Source: Bacteroidota bacterium
Lineage (GTDB): Bacteria > Bacteroidota > Ignavibacteria > SZUA-365
Assembly (NCBI GenBank): GCA_014860565.1
Contig: JACZJN010000011.1
Coordinates: 1-40,194, forward strand
Direction: 5' to 3'
Length of the DNA: 40,194 bases
Shown here: piece after piece, positions 12,630 through 21,817 of the stretch
How positions within the stretch are numbered: position 1 is the stretch's first letter
Layout of the letters: every line of letters starts with the position of its first letter
Notes under the pieces: model-generated
The model's input: only the letters and a program-made list of their open reading frames with translations
The model's database searches: none
What the model was told of the DNA's origin: nothing
Made by a program: the position numbers and the translations under genes

Positions 12630-12765
12630 GGTGCATTACCGGAAGCTACTTCTCTTTGATGGACTACTCCTGTAGTGGGTACGATGGATAAGCCTGTCAG
12701 AATGCTGTAAGCCGTTATATGGCGGGTCGCTTCGGGCTGAGCAGAGAATGCAGAGGAGACATAGT

Positions 12766-14244
12766 ATGTTTTCACCTGAGGGTGTTCTGCTGTCGATTCG
12801 CGAGAATGCGGATTGGGGACAATTTCGTGGTATTGAGGAGGGTTCGGAATGCATCGTCGTGATTGATCGGCAGCTGAACTACATCTACAGCAATCACTCC
12901 GCGAATGCGTTCGTCGGCCTGGAAAAAGACACACTGGTGGGGAAATCATTGCAGGAGGGATTGTCGAACCTTCCGCATATGCTTTCTGCGTGGCAGCACC
13001 GGATAGAGAAGGTGTTTCAGACCGGACAAACGGCGCAATATGAAGATCGCACGCCGTTCGCGGACCATACTGATTACAGCAAATCCACGGCATTTCCCAT
13101 CAGGGCACGGGATGGCAGGATTTTTGCCGTCGGGATTGTATTTCACGATTTGAGCCTCCCTTCTCAGCGGAACAATGCCTTGCGCGGGGCAGTGCGTTCA
13201 TCACAGACCACCACTTCGGGTGCCAATAACGGTTCGGATGCGGCCGGCCTGGTGTGCCGGTTCCGTGAGGATGGTTATATCCTGTACGCGAATCAGGCAT
13301 TTCATGCATTTTTCCAGAGGACGGGCCATTATCCCGAGTCGCGGGCCATTTCTGATTTCCTGCCGGATTTGAGTCTCGAACGTATCAATGAGCGACTTAC
13401 CTCAACAGAGTCTGTCGATGCGGTGTTCGAGACGGAGTTCAAGGTTATTACCGCGCAGGGAAAGAGACGAGCACTGCTCTGTGTGTTCCGTCGCGGGGGC
13501 GTGGAAGGGGCTGGCGGTCAGGCGATCATTTTGTATGCGAGGGAAGTCACACAGCTCAGAGAACAGGAGCGTGCAAGAAGGGAAGAGGCCTTTTTCGCCT
13601 CCATTGGCAGAATGTCCTCGCTGATTACTCATAAACTTCGGACCCCTTTGACATCGCTCCAGATTAATGTGGATCTGTTGCGAAAGGACCATCTGGATCT
13701 GGAAGCAAAGGCCCGATCACTGGATATTCTGCATCGAGAGGTATATCGTCTTCGCACGATCGTTGATGATATCCTGGGTTTCTCCCGATTCAACGAATTA
13801 TCGTGCGCCAACTTCCCGATACAATGCATTGTGGATGATGTCTGTGCTGTGCTCACCGGCCTTCTTGATCATTCCTGCATATCACTGGAATGCGATATCG
13901 AACCCTGCACGATATATGCGGATATGGAGAAGATCCGGGATGTACTCGAGAACCTGATCGGGAATGCCGTCCAGGCGATCGGGAAGGGTGGAAGCATCAG
14001 CATTCACGGCCTATGCCGCAGTGATGCGGAGCAATATGTCATTACCGTGACGGATAGCGGCCCCGGTGTGACCGAACCCGATAAAATTTTTCTTCCATTC
14101 TACACGACAAAGAAACGTGGTACAGGGCTTGGATTGCCACGCGGAGTACAAATCGCCGAGAGTCACGGGGGCAGCCTCACGCTGGCCTCCTCGCGTCCTG
14201 GTCAAACGACCTTTGCGTTGATCCTCCCGGTCTGGAGAACCTGA
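12766..14244 (+). CDS. PAS-domain sensor histidine kinase, NtrB-like
   Basis: This 492-residue kinase has no transmembrane segment or signal peptide, so it should sense a cytoplasmic signal. The first PAS domain spans about 20-125 (ECIVVIDRQLNYIYSNHSAN...). The second spans about 155-265 (AGLVCRFREDGYILYANQAF...). The HisKA helix carries H289 in THKLRTPLTSLQINVDLL, the phosphorylated histidine. The ATPase domain has NLIGNAVQAI (N box), DSGPGV (G1), FLPFYTTK (F box) and GTGLGL (G2). The ATG at 12766 is chosen because GAGGAGA lies just upstream. An in-frame ATG at 12748 precedes that site. The response regulator gene starts two bases after its stop, so the two form one operon. The signal is unknown. 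Confidence 0.92.
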   Translation: MFSPEGVLLSIRENADWGQFRGIEEGSECIVVIDRQLNYIYSNHSANAFVGLEKDTLVGKSLQEGLSNLPHMLSAWQHRIEKVFQTGQTAQYEDRTPFADHTDYSKSTAFPIRARDGRIFAVGIVFHDLSLPSQRNNALRGAVRSSQTTTSGANNGSDAAGLVCRFREDGYILYANQAFHAFFQRTGHYPESRAISDFLPDLSLERINERLTSTESVDAVFETEFKVITAQGKRRALLCVFRRGGVEGAGGQAIILYAREVTQLREQERARREEAFFASIGRMSSLITHKLRTPLTSLQINVDLLRKDHLDLEAKARSLDILHREVYRLRTIVDDILGFSRFNELSCANFPIQCIVDDVCAVLTGLLDHSCISLECDIEPCTIYADMEKIRDVLENLIGNAVQAIGKGGSISIHGLCRSDAEQYVITVTDSGPGVTEPDKIFLPFYTTKKRGTGLGLPRGVQIAESHGGSLTLASSRPGQTTFALILPVWRT

Positions 14245-14245
14245 G

Positions 14246-15655
14246 ATGGCTCGAATTCTTGTCATTGATGATGATGCTTCCATTCTGGAATCCCTCACGT
14301 TATTTCTTGAAGGGGAAGGACATGTTGTAATCTGCAGTTCGGAGGGTCGCGATGCGCGAGCACTTGTCGAAGCGCATCAGCCCGAGCTGATTCTGCTCGA
14401 TCTGCGTATGGTCGGGACAGACGGATTCACTGTGCTGCGAGACCTCGAGGCGTTGATCGAGGCAATTCCCGTAATCATGATCACTGCCCACGATGACATG
14501 GAGAATGCAATCCAGGCATCCAGTCTGGGTGTGTTTGATTTCATTTCAAAACCAGTCGATATCGACGTTCTCAGCCGGGTCATGGATGAAGCATTATGCT
14601 GCGCCCGCAAGTCCCGTGATGAGGACACCTACGGCATTAATTTTATCCCGACACTTGGCGAGCGGGTTCGCATCATCGGGAAAAGTCCGGGAATGCTCAG
14701 GATATTCAGACAGATCGGTCAAGTGGCCAGGAACCGGGTTACGGTGCTCATTCAGGGTGAGAGCGGCACGGGAAAGGAACTCATCGCCCGAATCATCCAT
14801 AACAGCGGACCGAGCCGTTTGGAGCCATTTGTCGCGGTGAATTGCAGCGCGCTGCCTGAAGGACTGCTGGAAAGCGAATTGTTTGGTCATGTTCGGGGGG
14901 CGTTTACTGGCGCGATACGTACCAAGAAAGGGAAATTCGAGCTGGCCGGGCGCGGAACGATTTTTCTTGACGAGGTCTCGGAACTCCCGCTGGGCCTGCA
15001 GGCGAAGCTGCTCCGGGTTTTACAGGAGCGAGAATTCGATCCCGTGGGTGGGGAGGGGAGTCTCCCGCTGCGTGCGCGGGTGATTACATCCTCCAATATG
15101 CATCTGACCCATCTTGTCAGGGACGGGCGGTTCCGCGAGGATTTGTTTTACCGCCTCAATGTGTACGAGATCAGTATTCCGCCTCTGCGCGATCGGACTG
15201 AAGACATCCTGCCGCTCATCGAATATTTCCTCTGCCGCTTTCAGCAGGATGACATTGTGACGATCAAAAGAATTACCAGTGAGGCCGTCACACTGCTTCG
15301 CGGCTACGCTTGGCCGGGGAATGTTCGTGAACTCGAACACATGCTTCTGCAGTCCTCGCTTCAGGCCCACGGTGGAGTTCTTCGATCAGAAAACCTCACC
15401 TTGCCCGAAGCTGCGGGGAAGGACAAGGCCGAATGGGAGCCGGAGTTCCTTCCTCTGAGTCTTGAGGAAATCGAGCGCATGCACATCGGACGCGTCCTTG
15501 CGCATGTGGGTGGGAACAAGCGCGCTGCCTGTGAGATCCTCGGAATTTCAAAGCCAACCTTGTACAGCAAGATCCGCAGGTATGGGATTCAACCTGCGAT
15601 TTTCACATCTGTGTCGGAGGCCTACAGAAATGCCCTCCCTCCATTTTCTTCCTGA
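14246..15655 (+). CDS. Sigma-54-dependent response regulator, NtrC/AtoC type
   Basis: This 469-residue activator receives phosphate from the adjacent kinase and drives open-complex formation by sigma-54 RNA polymerase. The receiver domain has acidic D8-D9-D10, phospho-acceptor D52 (LILLDLRM), MITAHDD and the lysine in SKPVD. The AAA+ domain has GESGTGKE (Walker A), GAFTGA near 218 (the loop that contacts sigma-54), GTIFLDEVSEL (Walker B) and FREDLFYRLNVYEI. The Fis-type helix-turn-helix is at the C-terminus (NKRAACEILGISKPTLYSKI). All residues needed for sigma-54 activation are present. A consensus -24/-12 promoter lies 110 bases beyond its stop, which makes the next gene the obvious target. 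This link is an inference from position. Confidence 0.95.
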   Translation: MARILVIDDDASILESLTLFLEGEGHVVICSSEGRDARALVEAHQPELILLDLRMVGTDGFTVLRDLEALIEAIPVIMITAHDDMENAIQASSLGVFDFISKPVDIDVLSRVMDEALCCARKSRDEDTYGINFIPTLGERVRIIGKSPGMLRIFRQIGQVARNRVTVLIQGESGTGKELIARIIHNSGPSRLEPFVAVNCSALPEGLLESELFGHVRGAFTGAIRTKKGKFELAGRGTIFLDEVSELPLGLQAKLLRVLQEREFDPVGGEGSLPLRARVITSSNMHLTHLVRDGRFREDLFYRLNVYEISIPPLRDRTEDILPLIEYFLCRFQQDDIVTIKRITSEAVTLLRGYAWPGNVRELEHMLLQSSLQAHGGVLRSENLTLPEAAGKDKAEWEPEFLPLSLEEIERMHIGRVLAHVGGNKRAACEILGISKPTLYSKIRRYGIQPAIFTSVSEAYRNALPPFSS

Positions 15656-15764: not shown

Positions 15765-15780
15765 TGGCATGATCTTTGCG
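15765..15780 (+). promoter_or_regulatory. Sigma-54 (-24/-12) promoter
   Basis: TGGCATG-ATCT-TTGCG matches the consensus TGGCACG-N4-TTGCW, with the invariant GG and GC separated by exactly ten bases. It lies 109 bases before the ATG of the first repeat protein and directly downstream of the sigma-54 activator gene. The 100 bases upstream contain T-rich runs (about 15679-15712) where the activator or a DNA-bending protein could bind. I see no clear inverted-repeat enhancer. Confidence 0.8.
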
Positions 15781-15888: not shown

Positions 15889-18246
15889 ATGTTCAGGTTC
15901 ATGACTCTTTTGGTTTTGGGGCTTTGTCTTATTGTCGGGCAAGCTGCTGCGGATGTGACCGTGACGGTGGAGTTCAAGACAAGCGCAGATGCCGCGATCG
16001 CATCCGCACAGGTAGATTATTACTATAACGGATGGCACTCCTTCGGTACAACGGATGCAACGGGCATCTGTACGAAAGATCTCCCCAGCGGGAATTACAA
16101 ATTCCGTATTAACTATGAATATGCCAGCTTTGAAAAATGGCAGAACATCGCCGATGATCCTCATGTCTCATTCAGTACGGTACTTGTAACGGTTGAGCTG
16201 CAGGATCACACTGGCACGACGTTCGATGAGCCGGGGTCGGTGCAGTATTACTCGGGCGGTTGGCGGACGTTTGGGGATCTGTCCAGCGGAACCGCGACGA
16301 AAGAACTACTGCCGTTGAACTACAAGTTCAGCATGACGCACGCGTTCGCACGGAAGGAGGACTGGCAGAATGTTGCTGATGACGCTCATGTGATTTTCAA
16401 AACGGAACTCGTGAGCGTCGACCTGAAGGACTGTAACGGCAATGTACTGACGGGAGAAGGCGGTAGCGTCCAATACTACAGTGGAGGTTGGCGTACTTTT
16501 GGGGATCTGACCGGAGGAACCGTGACAAAAGAACTGCTGCCGTTGAACTACAAGTTCAGCATGACGCACAACTTCATCCGCAAGGAGCAATGGCAGAATG
16601 TCGATACGGAGGGACCTCAGGTAGATTTCCCCGCCACGCTTGTCCAGTTCCAATCTTCGTGGACCATCAAGTACTACTCGGGTGGCTGGAGAGCCTTTGC
16701 ACAGCCGTCGATGTATTTGCAGCCCGGAACATACCCCTTTTTGTTCGGAGCCATCCAGCAATCCATAGAAATCAGTGGATGCACTTTCGGTGGTGGTTAT
16801 GTTGCCATCCTCCGGCTGAAGAATCACGCGGGTGCCCCCTTGTCCCTCGGAACGGCGCGTGGTGGTTACGGAACAGCCTACGGTACGTGGTCTGTCCCGG
16901 GAAGCACCAATACCAGTGGATACATATTCGATTTTCGAAGCGGTCCAAACACAACGCGTTCGTATGAAATGACCTTCAATCACACGACACAGGTCCTGAC
17001 CCAGGATGTCAGCGTGAATCCGCTTTACGATTTCCAGACGAATCTCCTCACTCTGCGGCTTGAGACCTGTGCGAGTATTCCACTGGATGACGCTGCCGTG
17101 CGCTACGGACCAGGAAATACCTTCACCACGTGGTGGTTCCCCGGTGGCGGAACAGGCTCCAGCGCAACCGGCGAGACAAATGCTGAGCTACTGCCGGGCG
17201 GTTCCTATTCCTTTGAGATGCAGTATCAGGGTACCGCACAGCAGTATCCACAGAATCCGGTGACCATCAGTGGAAATCAGACACTCACGTGGAAAACAAC
17301 AGCAGTCACCCTGTGGCATACCAATTCCATATCCTTCGGTGGCCCGACTGGAGATTCGCGGTGGTTCAATAAGCCAACGATGGAGCTGCTGGCAGGTACC
17401 TATACGTTCCATTTCAGAACGGGCAACAGAAAAGTTCTTACCTTCAGCGGATGCTCTTTTTCATACGTTGGATTTGATATCACGCTTCCACCTCCGTGTT
17501 CAGGGAAACTCACCGCCCTCAACGATCAGGATCTGAGCTGGATAGACCAGGATGGAACTGCGCAATACGTACAAATTCGTCCGGAAGTAGAACTGAATAA
17601 TAGTGACAGAAAGCTCGAAATATTCGGTGCCTCCGGTTGCTATACCGGTCAGCGTCCATACCTCGGATACTTCAGCATGGGCGGTCCAGACGGCAACTAC
17701 CTGACATTCAAACTCAATAGCATCATTCAAGTTGGGTATGGAATGCAGGTACAGCTCGAGGTCACGAATAACAGTTTGATAGGTTACACTGGTTCCAGGG
17801 CAGATAAACTCGCGTTTATCAACAATAATCCCATCGGGAAGCTCTTCAATCTCAGACTGGAATGGTATAACGACGACGGCACGCACAAGTCAGTATCGTG
17901 CGGAAGCAATAACCTTCCGGACTGGCGTGACATGCAGGTTGTCTCCACTGTCATGCCAAAACACAGTGTCGAACCGATCGAGCATGACATTTCGCTCGGG
18001 CAGAACTACCCCAATCCGTTCAATCCTATGACGAGCATCCGCTTTGTCGTCCCTGAGGAAACAACAGTGACTCTGCAGGTCTTCGACATGCAGGGACGCA
18101 TTGTCGGTACGCTGGTCGATGGCATTTTCCTTGCCGGCGAACATACGGCGACGTTCGATGCTCGTGATCTTCCCAGTGGCACGTATATGTACCGCCTCCA
18201 GGCGGACGGTCAGGTCTTCACAAAGATCATGACGCTGCTGAAGTAG
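15889..18246 (+). CDS. T9SS-exported modular repeat protein, smaller paralog
   Basis: This 785-residue protein starts with a signal peptide (MFRFMTLLVLGLCLIVGQAA). AGGAGG precedes the ATG. Residues about 22-525 are seven beta-rich repeats of the form V-x-V-x-L-x-D-G-x-P-L, YYSGGWRxFG, PGxYxFxMxY. Three long repeats (about 22-253) are closed by a short repeat ending ISGCTF (C298). Two further long repeats (about 304-472) are closed by one ending FSGCSF (C522). The long repeat before each cap has a cysteine (C182, C394). Residues 525-700 are different and unassigned. The last 80 residues are the T9SS sorting domain (LGQNYPNPFNPMTSIRFVVP). The repeats resemble carboxypeptidase-regulatory/Cna-B-like sandwiches only in general pattern. 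A surface adhesin, stalk or matrix role is inferred, not shown. Expression is probably sigma-54-dependent. Confidence 0.85.
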   Translation: MFRFMTLLVLGLCLIVGQAAADVTVTVEFKTSADAAIASAQVDYYYNGWHSFGTTDATGICTKDLPSGNYKFRINYEYASFEKWQNIADDPHVSFSTVLVTVELQDHTGTTFDEPGSVQYYSGGWRTFGDLSSGTATKELLPLNYKFSMTHAFARKEDWQNVADDAHVIFKTELVSVDLKDCNGNVLTGEGGSVQYYSGGWRTFGDLTGGTVTKELLPLNYKFSMTHNFIRKEQWQNVDTEGPQVDFPATLVQFQSSWTIKYYSGGWRAFAQPSMYLQPGTYPFLFGAIQQSIEISGCTFGGGYVAILRLKNHAGAPLSLGTARGGYGTAYGTWSVPGSTNTSGYIFDFRSGPNTTRSYEMTFNHTTQVLTQDVSVNPLYDFQTNLLTLRLETCASIPLDDAAVRYGPGNTFTTWWFPGGGTGSSATGETNAELLPGGSYSFEMQYQGTAQQYPQNPVTISGNQTLTWKTTAVTLWHTNSISFGGPTGDSRWFNKPTMELLAGTYTFHFRTGNRKVLTFSGCSFSYVGFDITLPPPCSGKLTALNDQDLSWIDQDGTAQYVQIRPEVELNNSDRKLEIFGASGCYTGQRPYLGYFSMGGPDGNYLTFKLNSIIQVGYGMQVQLEVTNNSLIGYTGSRADKLAFINNNPIGKLFNLRLEWYNDDGTHKSVSCGSNNLPDWRDMQVVSTVMPKHSVEPIEHDISLGQNYPNPFNPMTSIRFVVPEETTVTLQVFDMQGRIVGTLVDGIFLAGEHTATFDARDLPSGTYMYRLQADGQVFTKIMTLLK

Positions 18247-18269
18247 TTCCGTTGTATCAATCTTCCATC

Positions 18270-18300
18270 ACGGCCCACCAAGAGGTGGGCCGTTTGTTTT
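18270..18300 (+). terminator. Rho-independent terminator
   Basis: ACGGCCCACC pairs with GGTGGGCCGT around a four-base loop, followed by TTGTTTT. It starts 24 bases after the stop of the 785-residue repeat protein, so the larger paralog needs its own promoter or read-through. Confidence 0.9.
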
Positions 18301-18727
18301 ACAACGGTCTGAGCGCGATTTCAATTTTCCTCGGGTGTATTCGGCACCGCTACTGGTAATGAAGTTTATCGTCGGTTAAAAAAACTTCCTTCGTCAATTC
18401 CGCGGTGCCTGTTTTCGTGCTGCTTTGCAAACAGGCGAACTGGCATGATTTCTGATAATCATGCTCAGCAAGCAATACGATCTTTCTTCGCAGAAATGAC
18501 GCAAGTGCGTGAAGCCAGCGTCATGAGGATGCGTAAGCTCCCGATCACCGGATCAGAAGTGAGGAGAGGGTGTATTGTTCGATGCTGTCCGACGTAAATC
18601 CACAGATGAGGAGGATGAGTCGAAACTCGAAACCTCAGGAGGTCCGGATCCTGCTCACAATCAACCGGAAAGCCACTGCGCGATACTCGACAGAAACGAT
18701 AACGGAAACAGTTCAAGGAGTTCAGCA
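18301..18727 (+). other. Long non-coding leader before the larger repeat protein
   Basis: This 427-base stretch holds no gene I can support. In the reading frame of the downstream protein it is open from 18575, but the translation there is unlike any secreted-protein start, and a good ribosome site (AAGGAG, 18714-18719) sits just before the ATG at 18728. It contains a CCTGTTTT...AAACAGG hairpin near 18410-18435 and a sigma-54-like sequence at 18441. The AAAAAAACTT at about 18378 also occurs, in opposite orientation, upstream of the sigma-54 promoter at 15765. Confidence 0.5.
18441..18456 (+). promoter_or_regulatory. Degenerate sigma-54-like site
   Basis: TGGCATGATTTCTGAT shares TGGCATGAT with the good promoter at 15765, but the -12 element reads CTGAT, so the invariant GC is GA. 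It lies about 270 bases before the larger repeat gene. It may be a weak or decayed promoter. Confidence 0.25.
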
Positions 18728-21700
18728 ATGAAGACATTCGTTCGGTTTTTCATGACGGCGATACTGCTGTTTGCGATTCTTCCTGCCTTGGGCGGGAGTG
18801 ATGTGCTAGCACAGGTGCCTGTGACAGTGACGGTCTATCAAAGTGATGGATCCGCACCAGTGGCAGGTGCAGCAATATCGTACTATAACGGATATTGGAG
18901 GGGTTTGGGAAACACAAACGCGAGTGGTGTATGCAGCGCTTCGGTTCCATCCGGGAACTGGCCATTCATGGCATCGTATGGCGGCACCAGCGCGACGCAG
19001 TCAATGGATGTAGCGCTGACCCAAAGCCTCACGTTCTATACATCCGAGGCAATTGTTGAAGTATATGAGGCGGATGGCAGCACGCCTCTCTCTGGTGTTG
19101 CGGTATCGTATTTCAAGGGCTATGATCGAGGCATTGGGAATACCGTGGGCGGCACAGTGTCGAAGCAGCTTTTCGGTGGCGATGTCCCTTTCAAGTGCTC
19201 CTTCGGCGGAACGACATCCGACCCTCAGACGATGGATCTGCCGGGAGATGGAACTACGTCGGGAGAGTCGGCCACGCTTACCTATTACACATCCACTGCC
19301 ACGGTGCAGGTGTATGAGTCGGACGGCAGCACGCCCCTCTCTGGCGTTGCCGTGTCGTATTTGAGCGGGTATGATCGAGGCATTGGGAATACCGTGGGCG
19401 GCACAGTGTCGAAGGAACTCTTCGGTGGCGATGTCCCTTTCAAGTGCTCATTCGGCGGAACGACATCCGCTGCCTGGACGATGGCCCTGCCGGGCGACGG
19501 AGCTGTGTCGGGAGAGTCGGCGAGTCTTACCTTCTACACTTCCAAGGCGATGGTGTATGTCAAGGATTGTGACGGCACGCCGATCGCCGGTGCGTCCGTC
19601 TCATATAAATCCGGCTATGATCGAGGAATCGGGAACACTGATGCCAGCGGTCTGTGCACCAAGCAGCTGTTCCCCGGGACATGGACGTTCAAGGCGAGCA
19701 TTGGTGGTACAACGTCACCGACACAGGACATGGTCCTGCCGGGAGACGGCAAAACTACATCGCAATCGGCTTCCCTCACCTTCAATCCCACGGCGGTGCA
19801 GTTCGCGTACGCGGGAAGCAAAGCGTACTACTCCGGGTATTGGCGTGGATTCTCAGGCAAGATCTACCTATTCCCCGGTGCCTACGATTTCAAGTTCGGC
19901 ACGACCGAGGTCGAGGATGTCCCGATCGCCGGATGTGCTCTCAATGATCAGGTCATCATCGTGTATCTGAAGGACAGCAACGGGAATCCCCTTCCCGGTG
20001 GTTCGGTATCCTATTGGGACTACGGCAACTGGCGGACCACCGGTTTGCTGAATAATCCCACAGACGCGAATGGACGGGTCGTTGGCCTGGTGCCACCGGG
20101 CGTCTCGAAAGTCCGTATGTCGTACCTGAATACGTCTGGTGAGCAGGACCTTGTCAACAACATCGCGACGTTCACCACCGTGAAGGTGGAGGCCGAATTG
20201 CTGGCGCAGGACAATTCCCCATTGTCCGGTGGCGTTGCCCATTACTGGGGCTATGGGAACTGGCGCCTGATCGGAACGACGGACGGTAGCGGCAAGACCA
20301 GCATTGAAATCCTGCCTGGGTTCTACAAACTCAGGATGGGCTATCTGTACACCTATGAGGAAACGGATGCGCCGATAGACTATTCGGCAAGCGCGACCTA
20401 TACGTACCATACGACGAAGGCGGTGATCAAGCTGGCGACATGCAGCGACGTGCCGCTTGCAGGTGGTTCGGCTGTGTACTACGGGTATGGTAACTGGCGT
20501 GGCATGGTAGAGGAATCCACGGGTGTGTTTACACAGGAGATGCTCTCCGGCGATCAGGCAGTGTATACATTCCGGATGTCGTATAAATATGTCTCCAATG
20601 ATTACGACCATGACATAACCTCCGGATCGTACACATTCAACACGACCAATGTGACTCTGAACTATCCGGGGACCATCCACTACTACGCCTACGGCAATTA
20701 CCGTGCGTTTACGAAGCCCTCGATGGAACTTCTGCCGGGGGATTATGATTTCCGTTTCTCGGGCGCGGGAAATCCGAACTACCAGAAGTGGATTTCCGTG
20801 GCCGGATGCTCGATGACCAACACGTTGTTTGTCCTTCGCTTCCTGAACAGCCTGTCGGCGCCGATCGCAGGTGAGGAAGGCTTCATTCGTGAAGGGACGA
20901 CCTATGTGAGTCTCGGAAACACCAATGCAAACGGAGAAATTCTCGGACTGCTGAACGGGAATCCGGGATCGTATTATTTCAAGATGAAGTATCTCGGTCA
21001 CACCCAGACGAAATTGCAGAACATCGCCACCAATCCGGTGGTGCTCTTCCAGACCGTGCTCGTGACCGTGGAGCTTGTAGATTCCGGCAATAATCCCATG
21101 AAGGCGGAGGAGCTTTATTATCGAGATGGGAATAGCGGCTATCCGTCACTGGCAACGGACGCCTCGAGCGCCACGATCGAGATGCTGCCATTGTCGTATT
21201 ATTTCTATGCGACCTTGTATGGACACACGCAGACAATACTTCAGAATGTCGGAACGACCCCGATCGTACAATTCAAGACGGTGCTCGTGACCGTGGAGAT
21301 GCGTCAGGGTGGTACATTGTTCGTCGCGGACGAATTTTTGTACCGTAATGGAACAAACACCTACGTCTCGATGGGAACCAACGTCTCGTCGACAACGCTC
21401 GAGATGTTGCCACTATCGTACTATTTCAAGGCGAACTACGGCGCCGCATCGAAGACAAAACTCTGGAATGTGGCGAGCAATTCCTTAGTCCCATTCACCT
21501 GGGACGGAGTAGTAATCGGGAAGGACGCCGCGGATGGAGCAGCGATCTCCCCGGTCGCAATCGAGCTTCATGGCAACTATCCCAACCCCTTCAACCCGAC
21601 GACCGCGATCAAATATTCGGTTCCTGAGGATACCGATGTTCTCCTGCAGGTCTTTGACATGCAGGGACGCCTTGTGAGTACCTTGGTTGACGGAATTGCC

Positions 21701-21817
21701 GCGGCGGGAGAATACACGGTGACATTCGATGCGCGTGATCTCCCCAGTGGCACGTATATGTACCGCCTCCAGGCGGAGGGTCAGGTCTTCACAAAGAGCA
21801 TGACGCTCCTCAAGTAA
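18728..21817 (+). CDS. T9SS-exported modular repeat protein, larger paralog
   Basis: This 1029-residue protein starts with a signal peptide (KTFVRFFMTAILLFAILPAL). AAGGAG eight bases before the ATG decides the start. It contains about twelve beta-rich repeats. Four long repeats (SYYNGYWRGLGNTNASG, then three with SGYDRGIGNT or similar) are closed by a short cap ending IAGCAL (C403). Three with WDYGNWR-type cores are closed by a cap ending VAGCSM (C694). Three more, uncapped, run into the linker. The repeats before the caps carry C281 and C572. Repeats two and three share 45 identical bases (19121-19165, 19370-19414), a sign of recent duplication. The C-terminal 80 residues are the T9SS sorting domain (GNYPNPFNPTTAIKYSVPED). 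Function is unknown. A long, rigid cell-surface or matrix fibre is a reasonable guess. Confidence 0.85.
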   Translation: MKTFVRFFMTAILLFAILPALGGSDVLAQVPVTVTVYQSDGSAPVAGAAISYYNGYWRGLGNTNASGVCSASVPSGNWPFMASYGGTSATQSMDVALTQSLTFYTSEAIVEVYEADGSTPLSGVAVSYFKGYDRGIGNTVGGTVSKQLFGGDVPFKCSFGGTTSDPQTMDLPGDGTTSGESATLTYYTSTATVQVYESDGSTPLSGVAVSYLSGYDRGIGNTVGGTVSKELFGGDVPFKCSFGGTTSAAWTMALPGDGAVSGESASLTFYTSKAMVYVKDCDGTPIAGASVSYKSGYDRGIGNTDASGLCTKQLFPGTWTFKASIGGTTSPTQDMVLPGDGKTTSQSASLTFNPTAVQFAYAGSKAYYSGYWRGFSGKIYLFPGAYDFKFGTTEVEDVPIAGCALNDQVIIVYLKDSNGNPLPGGSVSYWDYGNWRTTGLLNNPTDANGRVVGLVPPGVSKVRMSYLNTSGEQDLVNNIATFTTVKVEAELLAQDNSPLSGGVAHYWGYGNWRLIGTTDGSGKTSIEILPGFYKLRMGYLYTYEETDAPIDYSASATYTYHTTKAVIKLATCSDVPLAGGSAVYYGYGNWRGMVEESTGVFTQEMLSGDQAVYTFRMSYKYVSNDYDHDITSGSYTFNTTNVTLNYPGTIHYYAYGNYRAFTKPSMELLPGDYDFRFSGAGNPNYQKWISVAGCSMTNTLFVLRFLNSLSAPIAGEEGFIREGTTYVSLGNTNANGEILGLLNGNPGSYYFKMKYLGHTQTKLQNIATNPVVLFQTVLVTVELVDSGNNPMKAEELYYRDGNSGYPSLATDASSATIEMLPLSYYFYATLYGHTQTILQNVGTTPIVQFKTVLVTVEMRQGGTLFVADEFLYRNGTNTYVSMGTNVSSTTLEMLPLSYYFKANYGAASKTKLWNVASNSLVPFTWDGVVIGKDAADGAAISPVAIELHGNYPNPFNPTTAIKYSVPEDTDVLLQVFDMQGRLVSTLVDGIAAAGEYTVTFDARDLPSGTYMYRLQAEGQVFTKSMTLLK

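What the first reader, a model, noticed from the sequence alone, without database searches (positions are those of the whole stretch)
16432..20809. Cysteine pairing rule marks module ends in the repeat proteins
In both proteins the arrays are punctuated by a short repeat ending in a hydrophobic-x-x-G-C motif (C298, C522 in the smaller; C403, C694 in the larger). In all four cases the long repeat immediately before the cap carries a Cys at the same early position (C182, C394; C281, C572). None of the eight other long repeats has a Cys there. The pair separation is 116-128 residues. This fits a disulfide that locks the last long repeat to its cap, and it defines a two-level repeat architecture.
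Basis: partly seen in the sequence, partly recalled or inferred. Interest (0 to 1): 0.76.

Follow-up and report, generated by a model that had tools for sequence, protein, structure and literature searches.

The report
Cysteine pair closes each repeat module
Two secreted surface proteins of an Ignavibacteria-like bacterium are built as short rods of repeated beta domains, each rod closed by a shortened end domain that a pair of cysteines very probably staples to its neighbour; the pairing holds in every relative that could be checked.

Summary
Both genes (window 15889-18246 and 18728-21817) encode a signal peptide, transthyretin/CnaB-like repeats and a T9SS type A tail. All eight cysteines lie exactly where stated. 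I count 15 long repeats, so 11 (not eight) lack the cysteine; the chance of all four falling before caps is 1 in 1365.

In this genome and relatives, 34 complete last-repeat-plus-cap modules show 26 with both cysteines, 8 with neither in the standard places and none with only one. No unit of 52 cap-less proteins (211 units) has the cysteine.

A confident AlphaFold2 model (pLDDT 94.7, pTM 0.85) shows seven-strand repeats joined tip to tail (G runs into A) and a cap with only six strands: C298 directly follows strand F, C182 directly follows strand A. That topology puts both at one domain interface. Terminal caps that keep strand G have moved their pair inside the cap, as the topology predicts.

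The tools gave no coordinates, so the Cys-Cys distance was not measured; the disulfide is inferred. No DsbA or VKOR gene was found. Best reading: a disulfide-locked terminator domain without strand G; new variant of a known fold.

The parts
15889..18246 (+). Gene of smaller repeat protein P0001 (785 aa): signal peptide, 5 long repeats, 2 caps, unassigned C-terminal domain, T9SS type A tail
   Evidence: ORF, translation, TIGR04183 E 1.7e-12
18728..21817 (+). Gene of larger repeat protein P0002 (1029 aa from ATG): 10 long repeats, 2 caps, T9SS type A tail
   Evidence: translation, TIGR04183 E 2.1e-10
16402..16629 (+). Cys-bearing long repeat of P0001 module 1 (res 172-247); C182 codon 16432-16434
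   Evidence: model strands A-G
16633..16782 (+). Cap 1 of P0001 (res 249-298), six strands A-F, no G; C298 codon 16780-16782
17038..17295 (+). Cys-bearing long repeat of P0001 module 2 (res 384-469); C394 codon 17068-17070
17296..17454 (+). Cap 2 of P0001 (res 470-522); C522 codon 17452-17454
19538..19786 (+). Cys-bearing long repeat of P0002 module 1 (res 271-353); C281 codon 19568-19570
19787..19936 (+). Cap 1 of P0002 (res 354-403); C403 codon 19934-19936
20411..20641 (+). Cys-bearing long repeat of P0002 module 2 (res 562-638); C572 codon 20441-20443
20642..20809 (+). Cap 2 of P0002 (res 639-694); C694 codon 20807-20809
15952..16401 (+). Two ordinary long repeats of P0001 (res 22-171), no Cys at the A-B position
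16801..17037 (+). Long repeat of P0001 between cap 1 and module 2 (res 305-383), His at the Cys position
18818..19537 (+). Three ordinary long repeats of P0002 (res 31-270)
19946..20410 (+). Two ordinary long repeats of P0002 (res 407-561)
20816..21502 (+). Three ordinary long repeats of P0002 after the last cap (res 697-925)
18007..18228 (+). T9SS type A sorting tail of P0001 (res 707-780)
   Evidence: PF18962 E 1.4e-9, TIGR04183
21578..21796 (+). T9SS type A sorting tail of P0002 (res 951-1023)
   Evidence: PF18962 E 9.4e-9, TIGR04183

Best explanation
The proteins are T9SS-exported surface stalks made of transthyretin/CnaB-like domains stacked tip to tail, strand G of one domain running directly into strand A of the next. 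Each rod is ended by a cap: the same domain with a shortened A-B loop and no strand G. Without G the chain cannot continue upward, so it leaves at the bottom of the cap after strand F, through a short, less confidently modelled linker, and starts the next rod. The cysteine right after strand F of the cap lies at the bottom of the cap, and the cysteine right after strand A of the preceding repeat lies at the top of that repeat; these two surfaces meet. A disulfide between them staples the incomplete cap to the rod and takes over the stabilising role of the missing strand. Shown: positions, co-occurrence, strand make-up in two models. Inferred: the meeting of the two cysteines in space, disulfide formation, mechanical role, surface stalk or adhesin function.
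For: Exact positions. 34 complete modules: 26 both, 4 with the pair moved inside the cap, 4 with neither standard cysteine, 0 with one only; in 14 aligned modules the two cysteines are among only four invariant columns. 0 of 211 units in 52 cap-less proteins carry the cysteine. Model of P0001 97-383: pLDDT 94.7, pTM 0.85; repeats have strands A-G, cap has A-F, C182 two residues after A, C298 two residues after F, drop in confidence just after C298. Independent homolog model L158 (pLDDT 91.2, pTM 0.71): G and A form one continuous strand 69-83, its Cys-capped cap again ends at strand F, while its terminal cap has a strand G (418-420) with the cysteine just after it and the partner at its own A-B turn, as the up-down topology demands. 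Fold match to CnaB and carboxypeptidase transthyretin-like domains, Z 9-11. SprA translocon present in the genome.
Against: No coordinates were available, so the sulphur distance is unmeasured. The genome (97.8% complete) has no match to DsbA (PF01323) or VKOR (PF07884); DsbB and other oxidases were not searched. Other cysteines in the same proteins (C61, C69, C157, C240, C310) have no evident partner, so not every cysteine need be oxidised. pTM of the second model (0.71) leaves its long-range arrangement less certain.
Confidence: 0.78

Rival explanations
1. The cysteines are kept because modules were duplicated as a unit (hitch-hiking), with no bond between them.
For: Modules clearly arise by duplication and the repeats are related.
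Confidence: 0.05
2. The cysteines cross-link different protein copies or hold a metal rather than pairing within the chain.
For: Loop positions near the surface; extra cysteines without evident partners exist in these proteins.
Against: The topological fit of an intrachain pair in both arrangements; only two conserved ligands, too few for a usual metal site; strict one-to-one coupling within a module.
Confidence: 0.08
3. The cap's missing seventh strand is supplied by the next module's first strand (strand donation), and the cysteines only fix that swap.
For: The next strand A of P0001 (res 303-311) follows the cap closely and is long.
Against: That strand is preceded by the least confident part of the model and belongs to the next repeat, whose own domain (model 208-287) matches CnaB-type domains as a complete unit.
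Confidence: 0.09

Closest known systems
CnaB-type domains of Gram-positive pilins and adhesins (for example RrgB, BcpA, SdrD B domains, L. plantarum CnaB2 8bdw)
   Same: Transthyretin-like seven-strand fold in tandem arrays on the cell surface; a covalent lock as strengthening device
   Different: No conserved Lys on strand A paired with Asn on strand G, so no isopeptide signature; the lock is a cysteine pair between two domains, present only at module ends
Carboxypeptidase regulatory-like / transthyretin-like domain (PF13620; carboxypeptidase D and N structures 5aq0, 2nsm, 3mn8)
   Same: Fold (Z 8.9-10.9) and weak sequence match below the Pfam cut-off
   Different: Single C-terminal domain of an enzyme there; here arrays with terminators that lack strand G
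T9SS type A cargo proteins (TIGR04183)
   Same: Sorting tail well above the cut-off in both proteins, SprA in the genome
   Different: The repeat array and cap are not part of that definition
Repeat tails of Paenibacillus and Cohnella secreted proteins (L160-L169, L171-L177)
   Same: The same long repeat, 40-50% identical to the P0001 repeats
   Different: No caps, no cysteines in 65 units; Gram-positive hosts

Membership tests
CnaB / transthyretin-like fold (long repeats) | Seven-strand beta sandwich of transthyretin type | tested here: met
   Strands A-G; single-domain matches to 3e8v Z 10.9, 8bdw Z 9.3, 5aq0 Z 10.9
CnaB / transthyretin-like fold (the cap) | Complete set of seven strands | tested here: not met
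   Cys-ended caps stop after strand F in two independent models
CnaB isopeptide domains | Lys on first strand and Asn or Asp on last strand | tested here: not met
   Strand A inner positions are V/L, strand G positions are V and F (97%); no conserved Lys-Asn pair across 348 units
CnaB isopeptide domains | Catalytic Glu near the Lys-Asn pair | not tested
   Not examined, since the bond-forming pair is absent
CarboxypepD_reg PF13620 | Score over the curated cut-off | tested here: not met
   20.8 and 28.3 bits against cut-off 32.3
T9SS type A cargo | C-terminal type A sorting domain over cut-off | tested here: met
   47.1 and 40.4 bits against cut-off 23
T9SS type A cargo | T9SS translocon in the same genome | tested here: met
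   SprA TIGR04189 E 1.3e-290
Interdomain disulfide-linked repeat protein | Sulphur atoms within bonding distance | not testable with these tools
   Structure prediction returned no coordinates and none are laid in the file area
Interdomain disulfide-linked repeat protein | Both cysteines kept or lost together in homologs | tested here: met
   26 both, 8 neither, 0 single among 34 modules

The most novel reading that the evidence does not exclude
A transthyretin-like domain without strand G works as a dedicated rod terminator and joint: it ends a tip-to-tail domain array, sends the chain out sideways, and is stapled by an interdomain disulfide, so that one polypeptide folds into several rigid rods hinged at covalently locked joints.
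Probability: 0.45. Interest if true: 0.6.

Novelty: new variant of a known kind. Interest (0 to 1): 0.5.

Why it matters
It gives a sequence rule that reads module borders in long bacterial surface repeat proteins, and it suggests how such a protein can build segmented, hinged stalks: by deleting one strand from a stackable domain and replacing the lost support with a disulfide. It also offers a disulfide counterpart to the isopeptide bonds of Gram-positive pilins, in a group whose surface proteins are hardly studied.

Tried and rejected
Whole-protein searches of genomes were swamped by the T9SS tail, so repeat-only queries were used. A first scan of genome contigs with P0002 found nothing; an alignment of 14 modules had no stretch conserved enough; a narrower alignment worked. 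No relatives in viral contigs. No solved structure matches by sequence (one hit only, E 0.31). Literature searches for interdomain disulfides in tandem bacterial repeats or T9SS transthyretin-like stalks found no description. An isopeptide bond was considered and rejected on residue conservation. Model coordinates were looked for in the file area and are not there. The cap alone drew no separate match among the listed structures, which is inconclusive.

Full report
What was claimed.

The observation. Both open reading frames are on the + strand: 15889-18246 (785 aa, P0001) and 18728-21817 (1029 aa from its ATG, P0002). Every stated cysteine is where stated and separations are 116, 128, 122 and 122. 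I segment 5 and 10 long repeats, so 11 others lack the Cys, not eight. Given 15 long repeats and four caps, the coincidence has probability 1/1365. Both proteins have a type A T9SS sorting tail and the genome encodes SprA.

Relatives. Repeat-only searches of the class found long repeats in 22 of 294 genomes and, with a module profile, in 39 of 391. Two kinds of protein exist. Cap-less arrays are common, also as tails of Paenibacillus proteins; 52 such proteins with 211 units never have Cys at the A-B position. Cap-bearing proteins occur in the window's own genome (also a second locus, contig C92), in G012, G035, G104, G193, G264, G601 and G680, and in two records labelled Gemmatimonadaceae and Caldisericota. 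In 34 complete last-repeat-plus-cap modules, 26 have both cysteines, 4 have neither in the standard places but a pair inside the cap, 4 have neither, and none has only one. Two more modules cut by contig ends (L099, L201) could not be scored. Separations in the modules first aligned are 110-128. The modules are about 29-38% identical to P0002 module 2, and only four columns are invariant, two of them these cysteines. The sequences are related, so the counts are not independent events; on a tree built with cysteines masked, the cases of loss or relocation fall in two groups, with modest support at the deep nodes, so few independent co-losses are seen.

The structure. AlphaFold2 on P0001 97-383 with 42 aligned sequences gives pLDDT 94.7 and pTM 0.85. 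The Cys-bearing repeat has strands A 173-180, B 193-197, C 201-206, D 211-216, E 220-227, F 230-237, G 244-248; the cap has A 250-255, B 260-263, C 267-269, D 274-277, E 280-286, F 289-296 and then C298. So the cap lacks strand G and has a short A-B turn. G of one unit and A of the next are separated by one residue, so units are stacked tip to tail. In transthyretin-like domains consecutive strands alternate in direction (established knowledge of the fold), and the first and last strands are neighbours on one sheet (PMC12617251). The end of A is therefore at the top of the repeat and the end of F at the bottom of the cap: the two faces that meet. This step is inference from topology, not a measured distance. 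The confidence drops just after C298 (block mean 79), consistent with a linker. The fold is transthyretin/CnaB-like.

A test of the topology. If the rule is right, a cap that keeps strand G should need its pair elsewhere. Terminal caps of L096, L119/L158 and L157 have LKDH instead of the cysteine in the last repeat, and carry FGSC (GAC in one) near their own A-B turn and a Cys at their end. The L158 model shows that this cap has strand G (model 418-420) with the Cys at 423, and the partner at 379 between A and B: both at the top. The other cap of the same protein has its Cys at model 210, after F (199-205); only a three-residue strand (212-214) lies between it and strand A of the next unit (216-223). 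One further terminal module (L106, residues 592-730) has lost both standard cysteines but has C652 at the E-F turn of the last repeat (top) and C688 at the B-C turn of the cap (bottom), again one interface; that placement is by alignment, not by a model of L106.

What is not shown. The tools return no coordinates, so the bond length was not measured. No DsbA or VKOR gene was found in a 97.8% complete assembly. Disulfides do form in the envelope of Bacteroidota (GldK-SprF, PMC12635249), so the chemistry is available in the wider group. The function beyond a surface stalk is inferred from the sorting tail and from the similarity of the array to pilins and adhesins.

Comparison. The fold and the tandem arrangement are known. 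The isopeptide signature of CnaB domains is absent. I found no paper describing a terminator without strand G or an interdomain disulfide at module ends in such arrays; the library covers open-licence papers only. Verdict: new variant of a known kind.

Noticed in passing
window 15765-15779 (+): TGGCATGATCTTTGC, a sigma-54-like -24/-12 site about 110 bases before the P0001 start, directly downstream of a histidine kinase (12748-14244) and an NtrC-type response regulator (14246-15655). Such sites in the window as a whole are no commoner than chance.
   Followed up: partly
L160-L169, L171-L177, C-terminal 200-300 residues: Paenibacillus and Cohnella secreted proteins end in three to five of the same long repeats, 40-50% identical, with no cap and no cysteine; the distribution across phyla suggests transfer.
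   Followed up: partly
L100-L126, last unit of cap-less arrays: The final repeat of many cap-less Ignavibacteria-type proteins has a lone conserved Cys inside strand A (TVLCTVKV); no partner seen, and the proteins end with that repeat, without a T9SS tail.
   Followed up: no
window 16069-16071 (C61), 18932-18934 (C69), 19655-19657 (C310): A second recurrent cysteine position, near the start of strand D (TGIC, SGVC, SGLC), in the first repeats of both proteins and in the fourth repeat of P0002; no partner identified.
   Followed up: no
window 17476-17988: P0001 residues 530-700, between cap 2 and the T9SS tail, match no Pfam family above cut-off and carry three cysteines (C537, C584, C671).
   Followed up: partly
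L198 and L201, repeats with KGACVEK: Consecutive C-terminal repeats carry a Cys at the E-F turn; by topology it would face the top of each unit and has no evident intrachain partner.
   Followed up: no
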